In this document: piece after piece, positions 6 to 8,675 of the stretch
Layout of the letters: each line of letters opens with the position of its first letter
Position numbering within the stretch: position 1 is the stretch's first letter
Origin: Mycoplasmopsis lipofaciens ATCC 35015
GTDB lineage: Bacteria > Bacillota_I > Bacilli_A > Mycoplasmatales > Metamycoplasmataceae
Assembly (NCBI RefSeq): GCF_000686585.1
Contig: NZ_JMKY01000004.1
Coordinates: 1-64,000, forward strand
Direction of reading: 5' to 3'
DNA length: 64,000 bases
Made by a program: the position numbers and the translations under genes
The notes under the pieces: model-generated
Databases searched by the model: none
What the model was told of the DNA's origin: nothing
Seen by the model: the letters and a program-made list of their open reading frames with translations, nothing else

Positions 6-239
6 GTTTTAAGTTAGTACAATATTTGTGTAAGATATAACCACAAAACAAACAACAAGACGACAAAGAAGGTTTTAAGTTAGTACAATATTTGTGTAAG
101 ATATAACATGAATTAGCGTCATTTAATTCGTATATTGGTTTTAAGTTAGTGCAATATTTGTGTAAGATATAACGAAGAAACTAAACTTAACATCGGAAAG
201 TGAGTTTTAAGTTAATACAATATTTGTGTAAGATATAAC
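6..239 (+). CRISPR. CRISPR array, trailer end (4 repeats, 3 spacers visible)
   Basis: Four 36-bp direct repeats lie at 6-41, 72-107, 138-173 and 204-239, separated by three spacers of exactly 30 bp. Each repeat begins GTTTTAAGTTA and ends GTAAGATATAAC. The first two are identical; the third has G for A at repeat position 14 and the fourth has A for G at position 12. The GTTTT start and AAC end are usual for type II arrays read in this direction. Drift in the last repeats is typical of the leader-distal end, so the leader, cas genes and newest spacers should lie left of the window. No cas gene and no convincing tracrRNA anti-repeat is visible here. Confidence 0.95.
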
Positions 240-475
240 CTGAACATTTGTAAAGTTGAAAGACGCCTAATGAGGCTATTAACTGACGCATTAAAAAATT
301 TAAATAAAAAATAACCTAGACCTAAAGCTATAAATTTTCAAAACAATAGTTATCCAATTTTAAAAATTTTGCATCGTCTTGTTGTTATTTTTTATGCTGA
401 TGATGAAAAGTTTTGTATTTAATTCTTGTTTTAAATACAATTTAAATAAATCTAAATACATAATTTATTTTTAAT
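240..475. other. non-coding stretch between CRISPR array and gene relic
   Basis: After the last repeat the sequence is AT-rich with stops in all frames. I looked for a complement of the CRISPR repeat that could mark a tracrRNA and saw none. With the relic at 476-708, the whole 240-900 interval holds no intact gene. Confidence 0.5.
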
Positions 476-900: not shown

Positions 901-3276
901 TTATTTTAAATAAAACAAATCATTTTCTTTATCATAATTTCATTTTTCATTTTTAAAATAATAGCTTGGATGAATATTAAATTCAAAATTGTAATTTTTT
1001 AAAATATAAATTTCTAATTCTTTTGCTTGAACAGAAGTATTTAAATTTTGGTTTAATATTTCATACAATGATTGCTCAATCAAGTTAGAAATAAAAAAAT
1101 AATTTTTGCTTTTATAAATCAAAGAAAATTTTCCATCAACATCATTTGATCTAATTTCTTTAATAATTGAATTAGCTTTGATTAAATATAAAAATAAATC
1201 ACTATGAATACTATTTAAAAAGTTAAAACATTCTTTTTCATAAGAATTTTCTATTAAATTATTTTTATTTAAAAAAGAATAAAAATTAATGATTTTTTCT
1301 TCTTCTATTTGATTTATAACTTTTTCAACTAAAGGTTCAAAATTCATTTTTTCTTTTATTTTTGAAACATTAAAAATAGTATTGTTGTCATCAGAAAGCA
1401 AAAAAATTTTTTTAATACTTGGATTTGAAGAAAGCAAAACATTTTTTAAATGAATTGGATCTATTTTGTAATTAAAATTTCGAATCATAAAATTTTCTTG
1501 ATTATTTATTCATTGAGCTATAGCTTTTAAAACAGATTCATATTTGGATAAATAAACATAATATTTAGTTATAGTTATTCCAAAATTATTCATAAATGAA
1601 TTAGAAAGAAGATATTCTCTATACTCTCCAGTAATATTTTTTAAATATTTTTCTTCAAAATAATCTCTTTTAAAAAGATATTCTTTTTGAAAGTCAATTA
1701 CTATTTCTTTTACAATTTTTTCACATTCACTCATTATTATTTGTTCTTCGCTTGACAAATCTTTTAATTTGTAAAAATTGGCCGCTTCTTTAACAAATTT
1801 ACAAATATTATTTCAATATGAAAATTTTCCTAATGAATAATTTTGATCTAAATACTTTCTAAACCTATTAATAGTGAAATTAGGAAAATTTTCTACTTTT
1901 TTGTAAATAAAATCTTTCATGTTGAAATTTATTTTTTTAATCGTTGGATTTCTTCTAAAATCCAATATATTTTTAAATTTTATACTATAAAGTTTTTTAA
2001 TAACCATAAACAATTCTTTTTCATTATAAATATCGTTTTGGTTACAAAAGTCTTCATTATTTATGTAAAAATGCTCTATATTTACGATGCTATCTATGTT
2101 TGTCAAGTATTCTAAAAGCATTTTTTTAAAATCATTAGAAGGATAATTTTCAAAATCGTAAAATTTATATTCATGGTTACCTAAACTTATCAAATTTTCC
2201 ATTCTTGAAAGATGACCTATTATAAGTCTATTTTTTTCGGACATAACATATTCATCAATTTCTTTTGTTTTATAGTCAATATTATATTTGTCGCACCATT
2301 TAACAAAGTCGGGCCAAATTTCTTTCAAATTAAAATATTTCAAAGAATTTTTTTTCGAAAATAAGATAAAAGCATCGCTGAATTTTAATTTTTGAAATTT
2401 TTTATCAACGAAAAATTCATTATTTAATGATGCTATTTTTTTCGCTAATTTTTCGTCATAAATTAAATTGTTATCATAAATATAATCTTTTGAATTTTTA
2501 GAACCTTCTCTTTTTACAAATATTCTAAAAAAAGTATAAAAATTGTAATTTAAGTTTAATACATCAGCTTCATCTTTGCTAAATTTATAACTTTGAGCTA
2601 TTTTTTTATATTTTTCAGTTTCGTCAAAAATTAAACTTTTATCTTCATAGATATCTAAAGCTATTTTTTGTAAGATTTGTCTAATTCTTTCTAAAGAAAC
2701 ATTTTCTAATATTGCTATTTCATTGGTACTCTTGCCACTTAAATATAAAAATAAAATTTTATATTTATCGTTATTTTTATTTAAATTCAATCAAACGTCA
2801 AAATTTATATTTGTTGTTTCTTTATCAATATTGTTAAAAATATTATTGATTTGAAAATCTAAAAAAGGTTTTTTGTTTTCTTGTTGAGTTTTATAAATTA
2901 AATATCAATCAATTAATTCTTTTAATTTGCGAGCGTGCGTTATATTCAAATTATATTTTTCTTTAAGTTCACTTAGTGTATTGCAATAGAAATCATTTAA
3001 TTCATTACTATGTATTAACAATTTTTCTTTTATTATTTTTGAAGACATAAATAAATTTGCAGCATAAATTGACAAATAAGAAGTATCCATATTTTTAATA
3101 ATTTTAATTTTTTTATGAGTTACTTTATTATTACCATAAATTTTTATTAGATTTTTTTCATTTATTTTTAAATTTGCAGATGAGAAATCCTCATATATTC
3201 TTTTTGGTCAATTATCAACACAAGAAGAATTTTCCAACATATTAAAAATAAAAATATTTATCTTGTTTATTTCCAT
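901..3276 (-). CDS. 791-aa protein with sigma-region-4-like helix-turn-helix; last gene of the defence-like cassette
   Basis: One continuous frame runs from ATG 3276 to TAA 901, with in-frame TGA (Trp) codons at about 2905, 2791, 1813, 1510 and 940. Around residues 165-195 the segment YLSGKSTNEIAILENVSLER followed by IRQILQKIA matches the region-4 helix-turn-helix of sigma-70 factors (EIA...VSxERIRQI). The remaining roughly 600 residues are charged and mostly helical, with no nuclease or ATPase motif that I can see. It starts 14 bases after the stop of the 125-aa gene, so it is co-transcribed with it; the Shine-Dalgarno is weak. It could be a DNA-binding subunit, regulator or effector of the system. 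Its function is unknown and the family is not recognised. Confidence 0.85.
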
Positions 3277-3290
3277 ATTTCACTATTTTT

Positions 3291-3668
3291 TTATTCTAAA
3301 ATTTTGCTTATTCATAAACAAGGATTACTTTTGTCAATATCTTTAATTTTTTCGTAAATATCTTCTAAACCAATATTTACTAAAGACTTAAAAGCAACTG
3401 TTGAATGACAATTTTTGTTTATTTTTTGAAATTTTATAATTTCCTGAATTCAACCACCCGGATCAACATTATCAATATTTCAAGTTGTCGGGCCATTATA
3501 ACCTTCATTTAAATTTTTATCTTGATACAATTTATTTTTTATAGCATAAATAGCAGCTATTCTAGCTCCGTCTTGCTTATCAGAAATATAATCAAAATCA
3601 ATTAGTTTTGTTAAACATGTATCACTATTTTTAGTTAAACCCATTTGTTTTATAGATTTATATTCCAC
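3291..3668 (-). CDS. small 125-aa protein downstream of the DndD-like ATPase (possible DndE-like or middle component)
   Basis: The start is taken as GTG 3668 because GGAGGT lies 4-5 bases upstream; an in-frame TTG at 3680 has no such site. The first half contains KNSDTCLTKLIDFDYISDKQ and ARIAAIYAIKNKL, and the C-terminal half has three Trp encoded by TGA. It is soluble, with no membrane segment. In dnd operons a DndE protein of similar size (about 110-125 aa) directly follows dndD, so position and length suggest a DndE-like partner. I do not see a clear DndE signature, and a middle component of an ABC-3C or Lamassu-like system is an alternative. It is coupled to the ATPase gene, whose stop is 12 bases upstream. 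Confidence 0.75.
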
Positions 3669-3680
3669 ATTTACCTCCAA

Positions 3681-5696
3681 TTAATACTCACTAGGCTCTT
3701 TGATGCATTTGATTAATGATTTATATGAAGCATCAACATCATTTTCATCGTAATTTTTATAAATACGGTACTCAGAAACAAGATTGTCGCCAATTGCCGT
3801 TTTTAAAATGTTATTTTTTTCTCCTTCATCACCAAACCACATTAGAATAATTTGTGGAGAAAGATTTTGAAAAACAGTTATTATTTTTTCTTTATGAAAT
3901 TCAGATAAAGTTGAAAAAGGTGCATCTAAAATAATTGAGCCTGTTAAACTAGAATTTTTATGAAGTCCATAAATTAGTGAAATAGCCAATAAACTAACAT
4001 AACCAGTTGATGGTTTAATTACTTTTTCATCGTTACTATCATAAATTGTCACCCCATAATAATCATCAAAAACTATTTTTTTATAATGAGGATTTTGCGA
4101 AATACTTACAAACATTTCGGTAGCGCTTTTTTGCACTTTTTTTCTCATATTTTTTTTATATTCTTCGACAGAATCATTAAAAATATTAGCTAAATCTTCA
4201 GAAAGTTGATGTTTTTCTCTTAAAATTTTTTCGCTTTCCTTTAATTCATCAGTATTTGAAAGATTTATAAAGTTTTTAATATTTTTTTGTTGATTTTCTT
4301 TAATTTCTTCCAGTTTTTCAATTTTTCTTTTTAAGAGTTCTATATCTTTTTCATTATTGACAAGAATTGTTTTATATTTATTAATTTTTTCGCTATCTAC
4401 ACCATTGATATCAAATTGATTTTCATAATTATTTATATTGTCTTCAATTTCCTGAAACTTACGATTACATTCAATGATGTTATTTTCATTTTTTTTGATT
4501 GTTTCTAAATCAAACGAATTGTTATTTTTTAAGAAAAAATCAAAATTTTGAATTTTGTTATTATATTCTTCAACAAGGCTAAAATCTTTTTTTTGATATT
4601 CTTTTAGTAAAGTTAAATTATTTTCAACAACCGCTTTAATCTTATTGAAGTTTTCTTCGCTTAATTTGTGAAAACAAAATTTACATCTTTCATTATTGAG
4701 AATTTTTTCATATTCATCTGTATCTTTTTTTAAACTTAGATATTTAAGATAATCGTTTTTTAATATAGAAATTTCCTCTGGCGTATTTTTTATGATTTCA
4801 CTAATTAGATCTTTTGCATAATTTTTATATGTTTTTAAAATGTTTTTAATATTCGATTTTGCAATAACAATTTCACTTAAATATTTCTCTTTTTCTTGTT
4901 TTAATTCTTTGATTTTTTCTAAAATAGAAGAAATTCTTTGATTTTTTGACAATTCAGTTTTAATTTCTTCATTTTCGTATTCTTTTTGTTTCAATTCTTC
5001 GTATGATTTTTTTATTTCGTTTTCAATATTTTCAAGATCTTCTTTTAATTTTTTATATTCGCCTAGTGATTTATCATTTTTAATAATATTTTTATTGATC
5101 TTTATTATTTCATCCCCATAATATCTATTTATTTTTAATAAATCGTTACTTGAGTTTATTATTGCTGAAATTCCTAGGATTTTATTAATTGAATTTGAAA
5201 TATGGTCATTTCTTTTGGAATCTAGTAAATTTTTATATTTGGTAATAACTTCACCTTCAAAAAGAATAAATTCGATAATATCGCTTGGAATAATACTTCC
5301 AATTATTTCTTTTCTTTCATTTTCATCAACGACTGGATTAAAATTTTTAACTAACCTTGTAGTTATTTGAAAATCATCGTTTGTGGGATTATTAAAATTT
5401 CTCATTGCTTTAACTGATTTTGTTAAAATAAATAAATCTCCTTGATAAGTGAATTCTAAATCAACACTCATTTGATAATCTTTTTCTTTTCAAGCTAATG
5501 AATTAATTTCATTGATTATGTCGAGATAATTTTTCGAATCTCTTAAAACAAATTTAATTGAATCAATTATTGAAGATTTTCCAACACCGTTTTCACCTCT
5601 GATAAGACTTATACCTTGTTTAGTTCCAAAATCTAAAACAGTTTGTTTATAGTAAGGTCTAAAGTTATACAATTTTAATTTATTAATATGTAACAT
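3681..5696 (-). CDS. SMC/Rad50-type ATPase with zinc hook, DndD-like
   Basis: The 671-aa protein starts KLKLYNFRPYY and carries Walker A GENGVGKS at residues 34-41. Long coiled coils follow, broken by a CKFC zinc-hook motif at Cys338/Cys341, the middle of the chain. After a second coiled coil the C-terminal lobe has a signature-like STGYVSLL and Walker B IILDAPFSTLSE. This layout matches Rad50/SMC ATPases, and the size (about 660 aa) matches DndD/SspD of phosphorothioate systems and LmuB of Lamassu. The start is ATG 5696 with GGAG 10 bases upstream; a TTG at 5702 is possible. It overlaps the 66-aa gene by 14 bases. It probably binds DNA ends or loops and couples ATP hydrolysis to the system's action. 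Confidence 0.92.
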
Positions 5697-5883
5697 CTTC
5701 AATTATCTCCTTTAATTTGTTTAAGTCTCTTTCGCTAAATTGTTTATTTATTTCATAATCAATTATTTTATTTATTGCTTTTTTAACTTTGTTTATATAT
5801 TCTTCACCCTTACTATCTAATTTTTGTTCTGCTATTTCATAAAGGATTTTTTTGTATTCTTCTTTTTTTAGATCTAAATTCAT
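5683..5883 (-). CDS. 66-aa acidic/helical small protein of the cassette
   Basis: MNLDLKKEEYKKILYEIAEQ begins a soluble, helical, charged 66-residue protein with no Cys and no Trp. Its ATG overlaps the TAA of the helicase gene (TAATG), and its end overlaps the ATPase gene, so it is translationally locked into the operon and is not a chance frame. Small proteins in the same slot between a DEAD helicase and a DndD-like ATPase occur in other bacterial DNA-modification islands; from memory they are annotated only as system-associated small proteins. The function is unknown; an adaptor is one possibility. Confidence 0.8.
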   Translation of the reverse strand: MNLDLKKEEYKKILYEIAEQKLDSKGEEYINKVKKAINKIIDYEINKQFSERDLNKLKEIIEDVTY

Positions 5884-7169
5884 TATTCTCCTCCTCTGAT
5901 TTTTAGTCTTTCAACATCAAAAACTAATGTTTCTTTATTTTTTGCATCTTGAGCGAAACACTCAATTCTTTTTATTTCTTTTTTAACTACATTATCTATT
6001 TCATATTCATTGTTGGAAATTGTTGCAAAATCATATATATAAGCATAATTTTTATTTAAAAATTTTCTCAAAACCCTCCCTCTTCTCTGAATATATTCTT
6101 TTTCATTTTGAGTTGAAGCAACAATTATAACTCTATCAATACAAGGAATATTAACTCCCTCATCCAAACATTTTATTGCTAACAATATTCCACCATTTAT
6201 TTCATAGTGACTTAATATAAAATTTTTATCTTCTTCTATATCATAGTAATATTCGTAAATTTCGTTTTTAAGATGCGGGATTCTTTCAACAATTTTTTCT
6301 TTATATTTTTTAATTTGATTTTTATTATTTAAATATATAAGTCAATGCTGTTTTGATTTAAATTCTTTTTCTAATCAAGAAATTGTTAGATTTAGTTTAT
6401 TTTTTGCTTCTTTTAAAATATTAGATCTTTTGTTTGTTAAAATCGAAAGTCTATTTTCATCAAAATTTATTTCTTTTTTTCAAATTAAAGCATTAATTTT
6501 AGAAGACAATTTATCGAATTTTTTTTGCTCTTCTATTGTCAATTTCACTTTTAAAAAATGATAATAATATTCACAAAGAAATTTTCTTTCTATTGCATTT
6601 TTTAAAGTAAAAACAGGTTCAATTATTCTATTAAAAAAATCTAAAATTTTTATTGTTCCATTTTCATCAAAATAGCGATTTGGTGTTGCAGAAAGACCTA
6701 TTTTATAATTAATTTTCATATTTAAAAGTTTGCTATTTTCATTTGAACCTATATTATGGACCTCATCACAAACTAATAAAATATGATTGCCAGAGAGTTC
6801 ATAAAATTTTTGTGCTAAAGCGCTTTTATATGTTGACAAAATAATATGTTTATTTTTTCCTTTATTAATATTTTCTGAAGTATAAGTCCATAAATCTAAT
6901 CTACTTATTTTATTGTTATCCCCCAAAAGATGAATTTTTACTTCTTCTGGTAAAAACTTTTTCAATTCATCATTTCATTGATTAAGTAAAATTAAAGTCG
7001 GAACTAAAATAATTGGAACTTGATTATAGGAAAATAAAGATTCTTTAATCGCATAAATAGCTGTTATTGTTTTACCTGAACCGGTACACATTTGAAATAA
7101 TCCACATCTATTATTTTGTTTTCAATTTTCAATTATCTTTTGCTGATAATCTCTTAATTTAATTTCCAA
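5883..7169 (-). CDS. superfamily 2 DEAD/DEAH-type helicase (XPB/restriction-helicase-like)
   Basis: The 428-aa protein opens with a Q-motif-like IKLRDYQQKII. It has Walker A MCTGSGKT at residues 27-34, a DEVH box at 135-138, motif III GLSATP, and in the C-terminal lobe KCLDEGVNIP followed by motif VI YIQRRGRVLRK. These are the RecA-like lobes of an SF2 DNA translocase of the kind found in restriction and defence operons; no nuclease domain is attached. The start is an unusual TTG at 7169, chosen because GGAG lies 7 bases upstream and the first helicase motif follows at once. It overlaps the methyltransferase gene by 11 bases. Confidence 0.92.
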
Positions 7170-8070
7170 TTTTTGTCTCCTTGTTTATTCTTTCTATAGC
7201 TATTTTGTAAAAATCTCTATTTTTTTCAAAACCTATAAATTTTCTTTCTAAATTTATTGCTGCTACTGCTGTTGTTCCAGAACCTAATCAAGGATCAAAA
7301 ACTATATCTCCTTTTTTAGTACAGGCTTTAATGTATTTTTCTGGTAAGTAAGATGGTTGGATTGCTTGATGATTTATTTTTTTATTAGAAGTTGCTCCAT
7401 GAACAATATTTGTTTCACCACTTATAATTTCTCTTTTAAGAGTTTTCGAAACATCATTAAAAATATTTTCAATATTATTGAAATAATTTTTAGGAAGAGC
7501 TCCTTTTGGATTGGGTTTAATTCTTTTTTCTTTTGAAACATATTTAAGACCATTATTTCTTGGTTTATAAACATTTTTTTCATATATTTTTAATGTCTCT
7601 TCTGAATATGTTTCTCTAATTTCATCAATATTTATTTCTCATATAGGTGATTTTGAAAATCACAAATTATATTCATAAGCATCTTGACAAGCAACTCTGA
7701 CACCTGTGGGGACAGGGTTTGTTTTTATTCAGATTTCAATATCAACACAATACAAATTTAGTATTTTTTTCATATAAATCATTAATTCTTCAACAATTAA
7801 AGATCTTTCAGAGGAATACCTACCTTTTTTTGATTTTGTTCTGTTTGATTTAACATTAATTACAATAAAACCATCATCTTTTAATTTTGGAAGCGAATAA
7901 ATCAAAAAAGGTGAAATTTTATCTATATATTTTTCTATTGATCATGAATCATAATTTCGATTTGCATTAGGATAAGGCGGAGAACCATATAATAGTTTTA
8001 TAGATTTATCATTTAATTTTTGTATTTCCTCAAGAGAATCAGAACATTTAATTAAGAGGTTTTGTTTCAT
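7159..8070 (-). CDS. DNA (N4-cytosine/N6-adenine) methyltransferase, beta-type motif order
   Basis: The 303-aa protein has catalytic motif IV SPPY at residues 30-33 and the AdoMet-binding motif I FDPWLGSGTT at 258-267. IV before I is the beta-class order of amino-methyltransferases. SPPY is commoner in N4-cytosine enzymes, whereas DPPY marks most N6-adenine enzymes, so m4C is favoured but not settled. The middle (about 60-240) should be the target-recognition region. ATG 8070 is preceded by AGGAGAG. It is the first gene of the cassette and would mark host DNA so that the helicase/ATPase part can discriminate against foreign DNA. No cognate restriction endonuclease is recognisable nearby. Confidence 0.93.
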
Positions 8071-8170
8071 TTTCTCTCCTTATTAAAAAAACAAAAACAC
8101 AATAAAAAAATAGACATTTTGTATGTCTTATTACTATTATTTATGTTTTTGAATTTGTTTGTTACTAGGT

Positions 8171-8187: not shown

Positions 8188-8299
8188 TACAGGTGTTTGA
8201 ACGATTTATTAACTTTTGTTGCACATAACACCTCCTATATATCTTTTTTTATATTATATAAAAAATTAAAATAATATGCAATTTTTTCATTTTTATATC

Positions 8300-8529
8300 A
8301 AGTGAAAAACAAAAGTGAGAACTTTTATAATTTTTTGGATATGAAAAAATATCAAGAAAATTCAAAAACAGATTATGAATTGAAGAAAGAATATAAAAAA
8401 CCCATCTCGTAGAATTTTGAAGCTATGAGATGGGTGAATCAGAACTATGGTTCATGGAATTATAGTTTTTTTATATAAATTTTAAAAGTAGATTTAAATA
8501 TAAAAAGTTCTTACTTTTGTTTTGCACTT
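8300..8529. mobile_element. MITE-like element, 230 bp with about 30-bp terminal inverted repeats
   Basis: The left end (8300-8329, AAGTGAAAAACAAAAGTGAG then AACTTTTATA) is the inverse complement of the right end (8499-8529), with two mismatches and one extra T. An inner TG...CA boundary at 8303/8526 is also possible. Inside are a hairpin (CCCATCTC ... GAGATGGG, about 8401-8437) and a rightward mini-frame from 8341 (MKKYQENSKTDYELKKEYKK) that stops after 23 codons, like the beginning of an insertion-sequence orfA. No transposase and no clear target duplication are present. It looks like a deleted, non-autonomous insertion-sequence derivative. Confidence 0.75.
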
Positions 8530-8675
8530 CACATTTCTTCCATTTTTGCCTATTAAAGCTATAAATTAAATTTATATTTTGACACAATTAATATATAAAT
8601 AATCTCTTAAATTATTTTTATTTCCTTAATTTGATGTTCTCAAAATGTCTATTGCATTTAATAAAATTAAATTCT

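What the first reader, a model, noticed from the sequence alone, without database searches (positions are those of the whole stretch)
901..8070. Six-gene DNA modification/defence-like cassette: methyltransferase, SF2 helicase, 66-aa protein, zinc-hook SMC ATPase, 125-aa protein, 791-aa sigma-4-HTH protein
The genes overlap or abut (11-, 3- and 14-base overlaps, 12- and 14-base gaps), so they form one operon next to a CRISPR array. Seen: SPPY methyltransferase, TGSGKT/DEVH helicase, Walker A plus CKFC hook ATPase. Known: DndD/SspD (phosphorothioation), LmuB (Lamassu) and Rad50-like defence ATPases share the ATPase plan. Inferred: a modification-linked restriction system that combines a base methyltransferase, in place of the DndC sulfurtransferase, with a DndD-like ATPase and a helicase. 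The combination with a sigma-4-HTH protein does not match Dnd, Ssp, BREX, DISARM, Lamassu or type I-III R-M as I know them.
Basis: partly seen in the sequence, partly recalled or inferred. Interest (0 to 1): 0.88.

Follow-up and report, generated by a model that had tools for sequence, protein, structure and literature searches.

The report
Methylase-linked PbeABCD defence, nuclease domain missing
A mycoplasma carries a methylation-linked version of a known antiviral gene set (PbeABCD), but the DNA-cutting domain that every comparable relative keeps is cleanly missing and a large DNA-binding protein has been added, so it can test whether this kind of immunity needs to cut DNA at all.

Summary
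The six genes are real and form one operon in a TGA=Trp mycoplasma genome. They are not an unnamed system. PADLOC models identify the helicase as PbeA and the ATPase as PbeC. The 66-aa gene sits where PbeB does, and the small gene after the ATPase has a DndE (PbeD) fold. The set is the methylase-linked PbeABCD / CxC-DndE type already described (PMC6459918, PMC10853773). All 25 methylase relatives found in about 85,000 species lie beside pbe genes, except two cut off by contig ends.

Three features are unusual. (1) PbeA lacks its N-terminal HKD nuclease domain, present in all 24 distinct comparison proteins; the shortened gene has its own ribosome-binding site, and no PbeA-type HKD domain was found elsewhere in the genome. 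(2) MTaX1 and the second methylase, present in 20 relatives, are missing; the window and three other such loci group together in trees. (3) A sixth gene encodes a sigma-4-HTH protein, shared with one other mycoplasma in the same gene order.

Best reading: methylation-gated immunity that blocks invading DNA by translocation without cutting. The identification is strong; the no-cutting mechanism is inferred. New variant of a known kind.

The parts
7159..8070 (-). beta-class N4/N6 DNA methyltransferase, 303 aa, SPPY motif IV and DPWLGSGTT motif I, probably m4C
   Evidence: PF01555 E 2.3e-39; 61% identical to L015 copy; relatives lie beside pbe genes in 23 of 25 loci
5883..7169 (-). PbeA helicase part only, 428 aa; N-terminal HKD nuclease domain absent; TTG start seven bases after AAGGAG
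   Evidence: PADLOC PbeA E 4e-121, aligned to model positions 250-666 of 672; HKD motif in all 24 distinct comparison PbeA; sequence
5683..5883 (-). PbeB-like small charged protein, 66 aa
   Evidence: position between pbeA and pbeC; a 63-84 aa ORF sits there in 22 of 22 related loci; 32% identical to L015 copy; no convincing family hit
3681..5702 (-). PbeC: CxC-type (DndD-like) ABC ATPase with CxxC zinc hook, 673 aa
   Evidence: PADLOC PbeC PDLC02744, 1427 bits, residues 4-636 on model 1-633; C340 and C343 conserved in three species
3291..3680 (-). PbeD: DndE homologue, two ribbon-helix-helix units, 129 aa
   Evidence: AlphaFold model pLDDT 84; best 17 PDB matches are all DndE, 7x4e TM 0.61/0.68, 4lrv
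901..3276 (-). sigma-70-region-4-like HTH protein, modelled as a chain of winged-helix-like domains, 791 aa
   Evidence: 30% identical to L015 copy; 12 of 16 family members match Sigma70_r4; model pLDDT 75, pTM 0.47
6..244 (.). end of a CRISPR array, 36-nt repeats at 66-nt spacing (neighbour, probably type II-A)
   Evidence: cas9-cas1-cas2-csn2-like genes at end of contig C5
8298..8534 (.). repeat element with 39-nt terminal inverted repeats just upstream of the operon (neighbour)
   Evidence: inverted arms 8295-8333/8496-8534; partial copies elsewhere in the genome

Best explanation
The operon is a methylation-linked PbeABCD (CxC ABC-ATPase/DndE) immunity cassette. The methyltransferase marks host DNA at a short motif, probably as N4-methylcytosine. 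The PbeC ATPase with its two-ribbon-helix-helix partner PbeD scans DNA and detects sites that lack the mark. It then engages the PbeA helicase, which translocates on the DNA and blocks replication of the invader. PbeB is a small regulator or assembly factor. The 791-aa sigma-4-HTH protein is a DNA-binding accessory that takes over target recognition or discrimination from the missing MTaX1/second methylase. In this copy PbeA has no HKD nuclease, so the most likely action is non-cleaving arrest. Shown here: gene identities by profile or fold, conserved order, the missing domain. Inferred: mark, scanning, arrest, role of the sixth gene.
For: Identity: PADLOC PbeA E 4e-121 and PbeC 1427 bits; the PbeD model's first 17 PDB matches are all DndE; a PbeB-sized ORF lies between pbeA and pbeC in 22 of 22 loci. 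Linkage to methylation: relatives of this methylase lie directly upstream of pbe genes in 23 of 25 loci across Bacillota and Bacteroidota, the other two being contig ends; no DndC in the genome. Nuclease loss: alignment begins at position 250 of the PbeA model; HxK..GSxN present in 24 of 24 distinct comparison PbeA; no PbeA-type HKD elsewhere, the only PLD domains form a two-domain pair at C2:37071-38009; own Shine-Dalgarno and TTG start; helicase motifs intact. Mechanism: PbeABCD of Haloterrigena blocked SNJ1 replication with no sign of DNA cleavage (PMC6459918). Sixth gene: same position in L015, modelled winged-helix chain; three of the four MTaX1-less cassettes carry an HTH gene directly after pbeD.
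Against: No experiment on this or any methylase-linked Pbe system was found. Rakesh et al. 2024 argue that Pbe systems act by cleavage because most keep HKD. The nuclease-less copy is a single case and could be an early step of decay. Selection could not be measured, since only one genome per species is held. The sixth gene's role rests on three loci and on a model with low confidence over residues 1-160. The target motif and methylated base are unknown.
Confidence: 0.6

Rival explanations
1. The cassette is a decaying remnant: the nuclease domain was lost, restriction no longer works, and the methylase and other genes persist for a while.
For: Only this copy lacks HKD; the operon is patchy, 2 of 61 genomes in the genus; a repeat element lies just upstream.
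Against: Six intact ORFs in a very AT-rich genome, intact helicase motifs, a clean start with a strong Shine-Dalgarno directly before the helicase domain.
Confidence: 0.25
2. A conventional cleaving system: cutting is done by another nuclease supplied in trans or hidden in the sixth gene.
For: The vast majority of Pbe systems carry HKD and are predicted to cut (PMC10853773); residues 1-160 of the sixth protein are poorly modelled.
Against: No nuclease-domain match in any of the six proteins beyond generic restriction-helicase motor hits; the second mycoplasma has the sixth gene as well as an HKD PbeA; no PbeA-type HKD elsewhere in the genome.
Confidence: 0.2
3. Not defence: a methylation-dependent chromosome-maintenance or gene-regulation module, with the sigma-4-HTH protein as a regulator.
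For: Sigma70_r4 and RNA polymerase alpha-CTD domains in the sixth-gene family; some family members lie in chromosomal neighbourhoods without recognised defence genes.
Against: Patchy distribution and different insertion sites in the two mycoplasmas; adjacency to a CRISPR array; the Pbe family has experimentally shown antiviral action.
Confidence: 0.08

Closest known systems
PbeABCD (phosphorothioate-linked, Haloterrigena jeotgali; Xiong et al. 2019, PMC6459918)
   Same: Helicase, small 66-aa protein, DndD-like ATPase and small DndE-like protein in the order A-B-C-D.
   Different: Modification is a base methylase instead of DndCDEA; PbeA lacks the N-terminal domain; a 791-aa sigma-4-HTH gene is added.
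Methylase-linked CxC-DndE systems with MTaX1 (Rakesh, Aravind and Krishnan 2024, PMC10853773)
   Same: N4-type methylase upstream of HKD-SF2 helicase, small protein, CxC ATPase and DndE; 20 such loci seen here with two methylases and MTaX1.
   Different: Here one methylase, no MTaX1, no HKD domain, and a sixth gene after pbeD.
DndABCDE / DndFGH
   Same: DndD-like ATPase paired with a DndE-fold protein.
   Different: No DndC in the genome; no phosphorothioation expected.
Hma (helicase, m5C methyltransferase, ATPase; PMC8565338)
   Same: Helicase plus methylase plus ATPase plan.
   Different: No Hma model was reported for the helicase (all 20 hits shown) or among the best 25 for the other two; methylase is of the N4/N6 class; DndE present.
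sigma-4-HTH / ParB-like / SNF2-helicase cassettes of Bacilli and Enterococcus plasmids (seen here)
   Same: Share the family of the sixth gene; at least L021 and L106 also carry a PLD/HKD-helicase.
   Different: No PbeC, PbeD or Pbe-type methylase recognised; often a Dam-type methylase; no name found.

Membership tests
PbeABCD / CxC ABC-ATPase-DndE system | PbeC: DndD-like ABC ATPase with CxC/CxxC zinc hook | tested here: met
   PADLOC PbeC 1427 bits over the full model; C340/C343 conserved
PbeABCD / CxC ABC-ATPase-DndE system | PbeD: DndE homologue with two RHH units next to the ATPase | tested here: met
   model pLDDT 84; top 17 PDB matches are DndE, probability up to 1.00, best E 0.033
PbeABCD / CxC ABC-ATPase-DndE system | PbeA SF2 helicase module | tested here: met
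   PADLOC PbeA E 4e-121
PbeABCD / CxC ABC-ATPase-DndE system | HKD endonuclease domain fused to PbeA (vast majority of members, not all) | tested here: not met
   alignment starts at model position 250; no HxK..GSxN; not found elsewhere in the genome
PbeABCD / CxC ABC-ATPase-DndE system | PbeB small protein between pbeA and pbeC | tested here: inconclusive
   right position and size, no profile match
PbeABCD / CxC ABC-ATPase-DndE system | Antiviral activity dependent on the DNA mark | not testable with these tools
   needs experiment
Methylase-linked MTaX1 subtype | MTaX1 gene with the methylase | tested here: not met
   absent in window and L015, present in 21 relatives
Dnd phosphorothioation | DndC PAPS-reductase-like sulfurtransferase | tested here: not met
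   PF01507 absent in the genome, 14 of 14 control genomes positive
Hma | HmaA helicase, m5C methylase, HmaC ATPase | tested here: inconclusive
   helicase has no Hma hit among all 20 families; methylase is PF01555, not m5C; ATPase and methylase lists were cut at 25

The most novel reading that the evidence does not exclude
A naturally nuclease-free, methylation-gated immune system: self/non-self is read from base methylation, and the invader is stopped by ATPase and helicase action alone, with a winged-helix array protein as the recognition part. It would show that cutting is dispensable in the Pbe/CxC-DndE class and settle a published disagreement on how PbeABCD works.
Probability: 0.35. Interest if true: 0.75.

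Novelty: new variant of a known kind. Interest (0 to 1): 0.52.

Why it matters
Two papers disagree on PbeABCD: one saw replication block without cleavage, the other argues for cleavage because most systems keep the HKD nuclease. An operon that has cleanly lost HKD but kept the other genes is a natural experiment on that question. It also suggests that base methylation can replace phosphorothioation as the self mark, and that the recognition module (MTaX1 or an HTH-array protein) can be exchanged.

Tried and rejected
Dnd proper: no DndC in the genome. Hma: no Hma model was reported for the helicase. Lamassu and Rad50: the ATPase scores far lower with LmuB and Rad50 models than with PbeC. HKD domain displaced elsewhere: none found. 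Sixth gene as a nuclease: no family match; PDB matches were weak and no plausible nuclease stood out among the top 50. Sixth gene in phages or plasmids by direct search: none with the window protein; found on Enterococcus plasmids only through the L086 relative. Sequence profile of PbeD against PDB gave no DndE; only the fold comparison did. Viral-contig scans with the ATPase and sixth gene gave nothing. The first genome-contig scan with PbeC gave nothing. Paper search for the sigma-factor-like HTH name in defence gave none.

Full report
Observation. Window 901-8070 lies in a mycoplasma-type genome that reads TGA as tryptophan (778,716 bases, 6 contigs). With code 4 the minus strand carries six tightly packed ORFs: methyltransferase (303 aa), SF2 helicase (428 aa), 66-aa protein, 673-aa ATPase, 129-aa protein and 791-aa protein. 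Four of them are preceded by clear Shine-Dalgarno sequences. A CRISPR array starts the window; cas9-cas1-cas2-csn2-like genes with a matching repeat end contig C5, so the operon probably flanks a type II-A locus. The contig junction itself is not shown.

What the genes are. The methylase belongs to PF01555, with SPPY before DPWLGSGTT, the beta-class order; the closest solved relatives include MboIIA and the m4C enzyme of PvuII. The helicase matches PADLOC PbeA (E 4e-121), but only from model position 250 onward. The ATPase matches a PADLOC PbeC model over its full length with 1427 bits, which suggests that this protein or a near copy is already in that library. It carries a CxxC hook. The 129-aa protein has no family match. 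Its AlphaFold model (pLDDT 84, strand-helix-helix twice) finds DndE structures as its first 17 PDB matches (7x4e, 4lrv, 5wtu). It is therefore PbeD by fold and position. The 66-aa protein is PbeB by position and size.

Literature. Xiong et al. 2019 (PMC6459918) defined PbeABCD and reported that 155 of 320 solitary pbeAC pairs lie near methylase genes. They saw inhibited replication of virus SNJ1 without DNA cleavage. Rakesh et al. 2024 (PMC10853773) re-described the set as CxC ABC-ATPase/DndE systems with an HKD-SF2 PbeA, noted versions with cytosine methylases and MTaX1, and argued that cleavage is part of the action. The window's operon belongs to this methylase-linked type.

Conservation. 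A scan of about 85,000 species with the methylase alignment gave 25 loci (L060 is the same contig as L051). PbeA lies downstream in 23; the other two loci end at the methylase. PbeC is present in 21 and PbeD in 19, the rest being cut by contig ends. A small ORF lies between pbeA and pbeC in 22 of 22 testable loci. The same six-gene order, including the sixth gene, occurs in one other species of the genus (L015; identities MTase 61, helicase 44, small protein 32, ATPase 34, PbeD 29, sixth gene 30%). There it sits beside ATP-synthase genes rather than beside ylxM-ftsY (gene names from my own reading of the translations). Only 2 of 61 genomes of the genus have the methylase. The set is mobile and patchy.

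Feature 1, no nuclease. All 24 distinct comparison PbeA proteins from the methylase-linked loci carry HxK..GSxN in the N-terminal domain; the window's does not. Of five further PbeA proteins, four have the motif and one (L059) has HEK without GSxN but keeps the domain. The window's gene starts with TTG seven bases after AAGGAG, directly before the helicase domain, and overlaps the methylase by 11 bases. A search with the L015 nuclease domain found nothing in the genome. The only PLD domains are a two-domain pair at C2:37071-38009, probably cardiolipin synthase.

Feature 2, no MTaX1. In 20 loci a second methylase and an MTaX1 gene or fusion (PF20296) accompany the set. The window, L015, L060 and L077 have a methylase abutting pbeA and no MTaX1; in L077 the contig starts just before the methylase. 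These four form one group in trees of PbeA (96/98), PbeC (84/84) and MTase (90/95). Long branches make this tentative.

Feature 3, sixth gene. Relatives of the 791-aa protein form a broad family of about 740-1,310 aa in Bacilli: 12 of 16 match Sigma70_r4 and 5 match the RNA polymerase alpha C-terminal domain. The model (pLDDT 75, pTM 0.47) is good from about residue 160 and shows repeated helix and beta-hairpin units consistent with winged helices. PDB matches are weak and of mixed kinds, several of them tandem winged-helix proteins. Family members precede a ParB-like gene and a SNF2 helicase in seven loci, and AIPR and Z1 genes in another (L086). In L077 the gene after pbeD, overlapping it, encodes a different HTH protein (HTH_73). 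I infer that the sixth gene supplies DNA recognition in place of MTaX1. This is the weakest step.

Mechanism. Methylase marks self; PbeC-PbeD scans; PbeA translocates; replication of unmarked DNA stops. In this copy no cutting domain is left, so arrest without cleavage is the most likely action if the system is active (about 0.45). Decay (0.25) and an unseen nuclease (0.2) remain open. The identification as methylase-linked PbeABCD is about 0.93 certain.

Verdict. The novelty is a nuclease-less, MTaX1-less variant with an HTH-array accessory.

Noticed in passing
window 8298-8534: A 237-bp repeat with 39-nt terminal inverted repeats lies just upstream of the operon; partial copies (about 10 clear ones, up to 88% identical over 230 bp) occur on contigs C1 and C3. 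It looks like a MITE or insertion-sequence remnant.
   Followed up: partly
L021:5227-11427; L104:8110-13847; L105:8314-13845; L106:1049-8125; L107:7081-14176; L108:4817-12591; L111:3822-9922: A conserved cassette of a sigma-4-HTH protein, a ParB-like 400-430 aa protein (DGNRR motif in L021) and a SNF2 helicase (PLD/HKD domain found in L021 and L106), sometimes with a Dam-type methylase. It occurs on Enterococcus plasmids; no name found in PADLOC (L021 proteins tested) or Pfam.
   Followed up: partly
L086:1525-8377: A 914-aa sigma-4-HTH protein precedes AIPR and Z1 genes in another genome of the same order.
   Followed up: partly
L077:5855-7216: In a Gallicola MAG the gene after pbeD encodes a 453-aa HTH_73 protein with a weak match to PADLOC PDC-S18 at its C-terminus.
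   Followed up: no
L060:15721-16968: A 415-aa AAA plus M41-peptidase (FtsH-like) gene follows pbeD in a Bacillota MAG that lacks MTaX1.
   Followed up: no
L119:5463-10961 (contig C5): cas9 (1146 aa), cas1, cas2 and a csn2-like gene at the end of contig C5, with a matching repeat after cas9; probably continuous with the array at the start of the window.
   Followed up: partly
window 8109-8121 and 8641-8653: A perfect 13-nt inverted repeat (AATAGACATTTTG) brackets the intergenic region upstream of the methylase.
   Followed up: no
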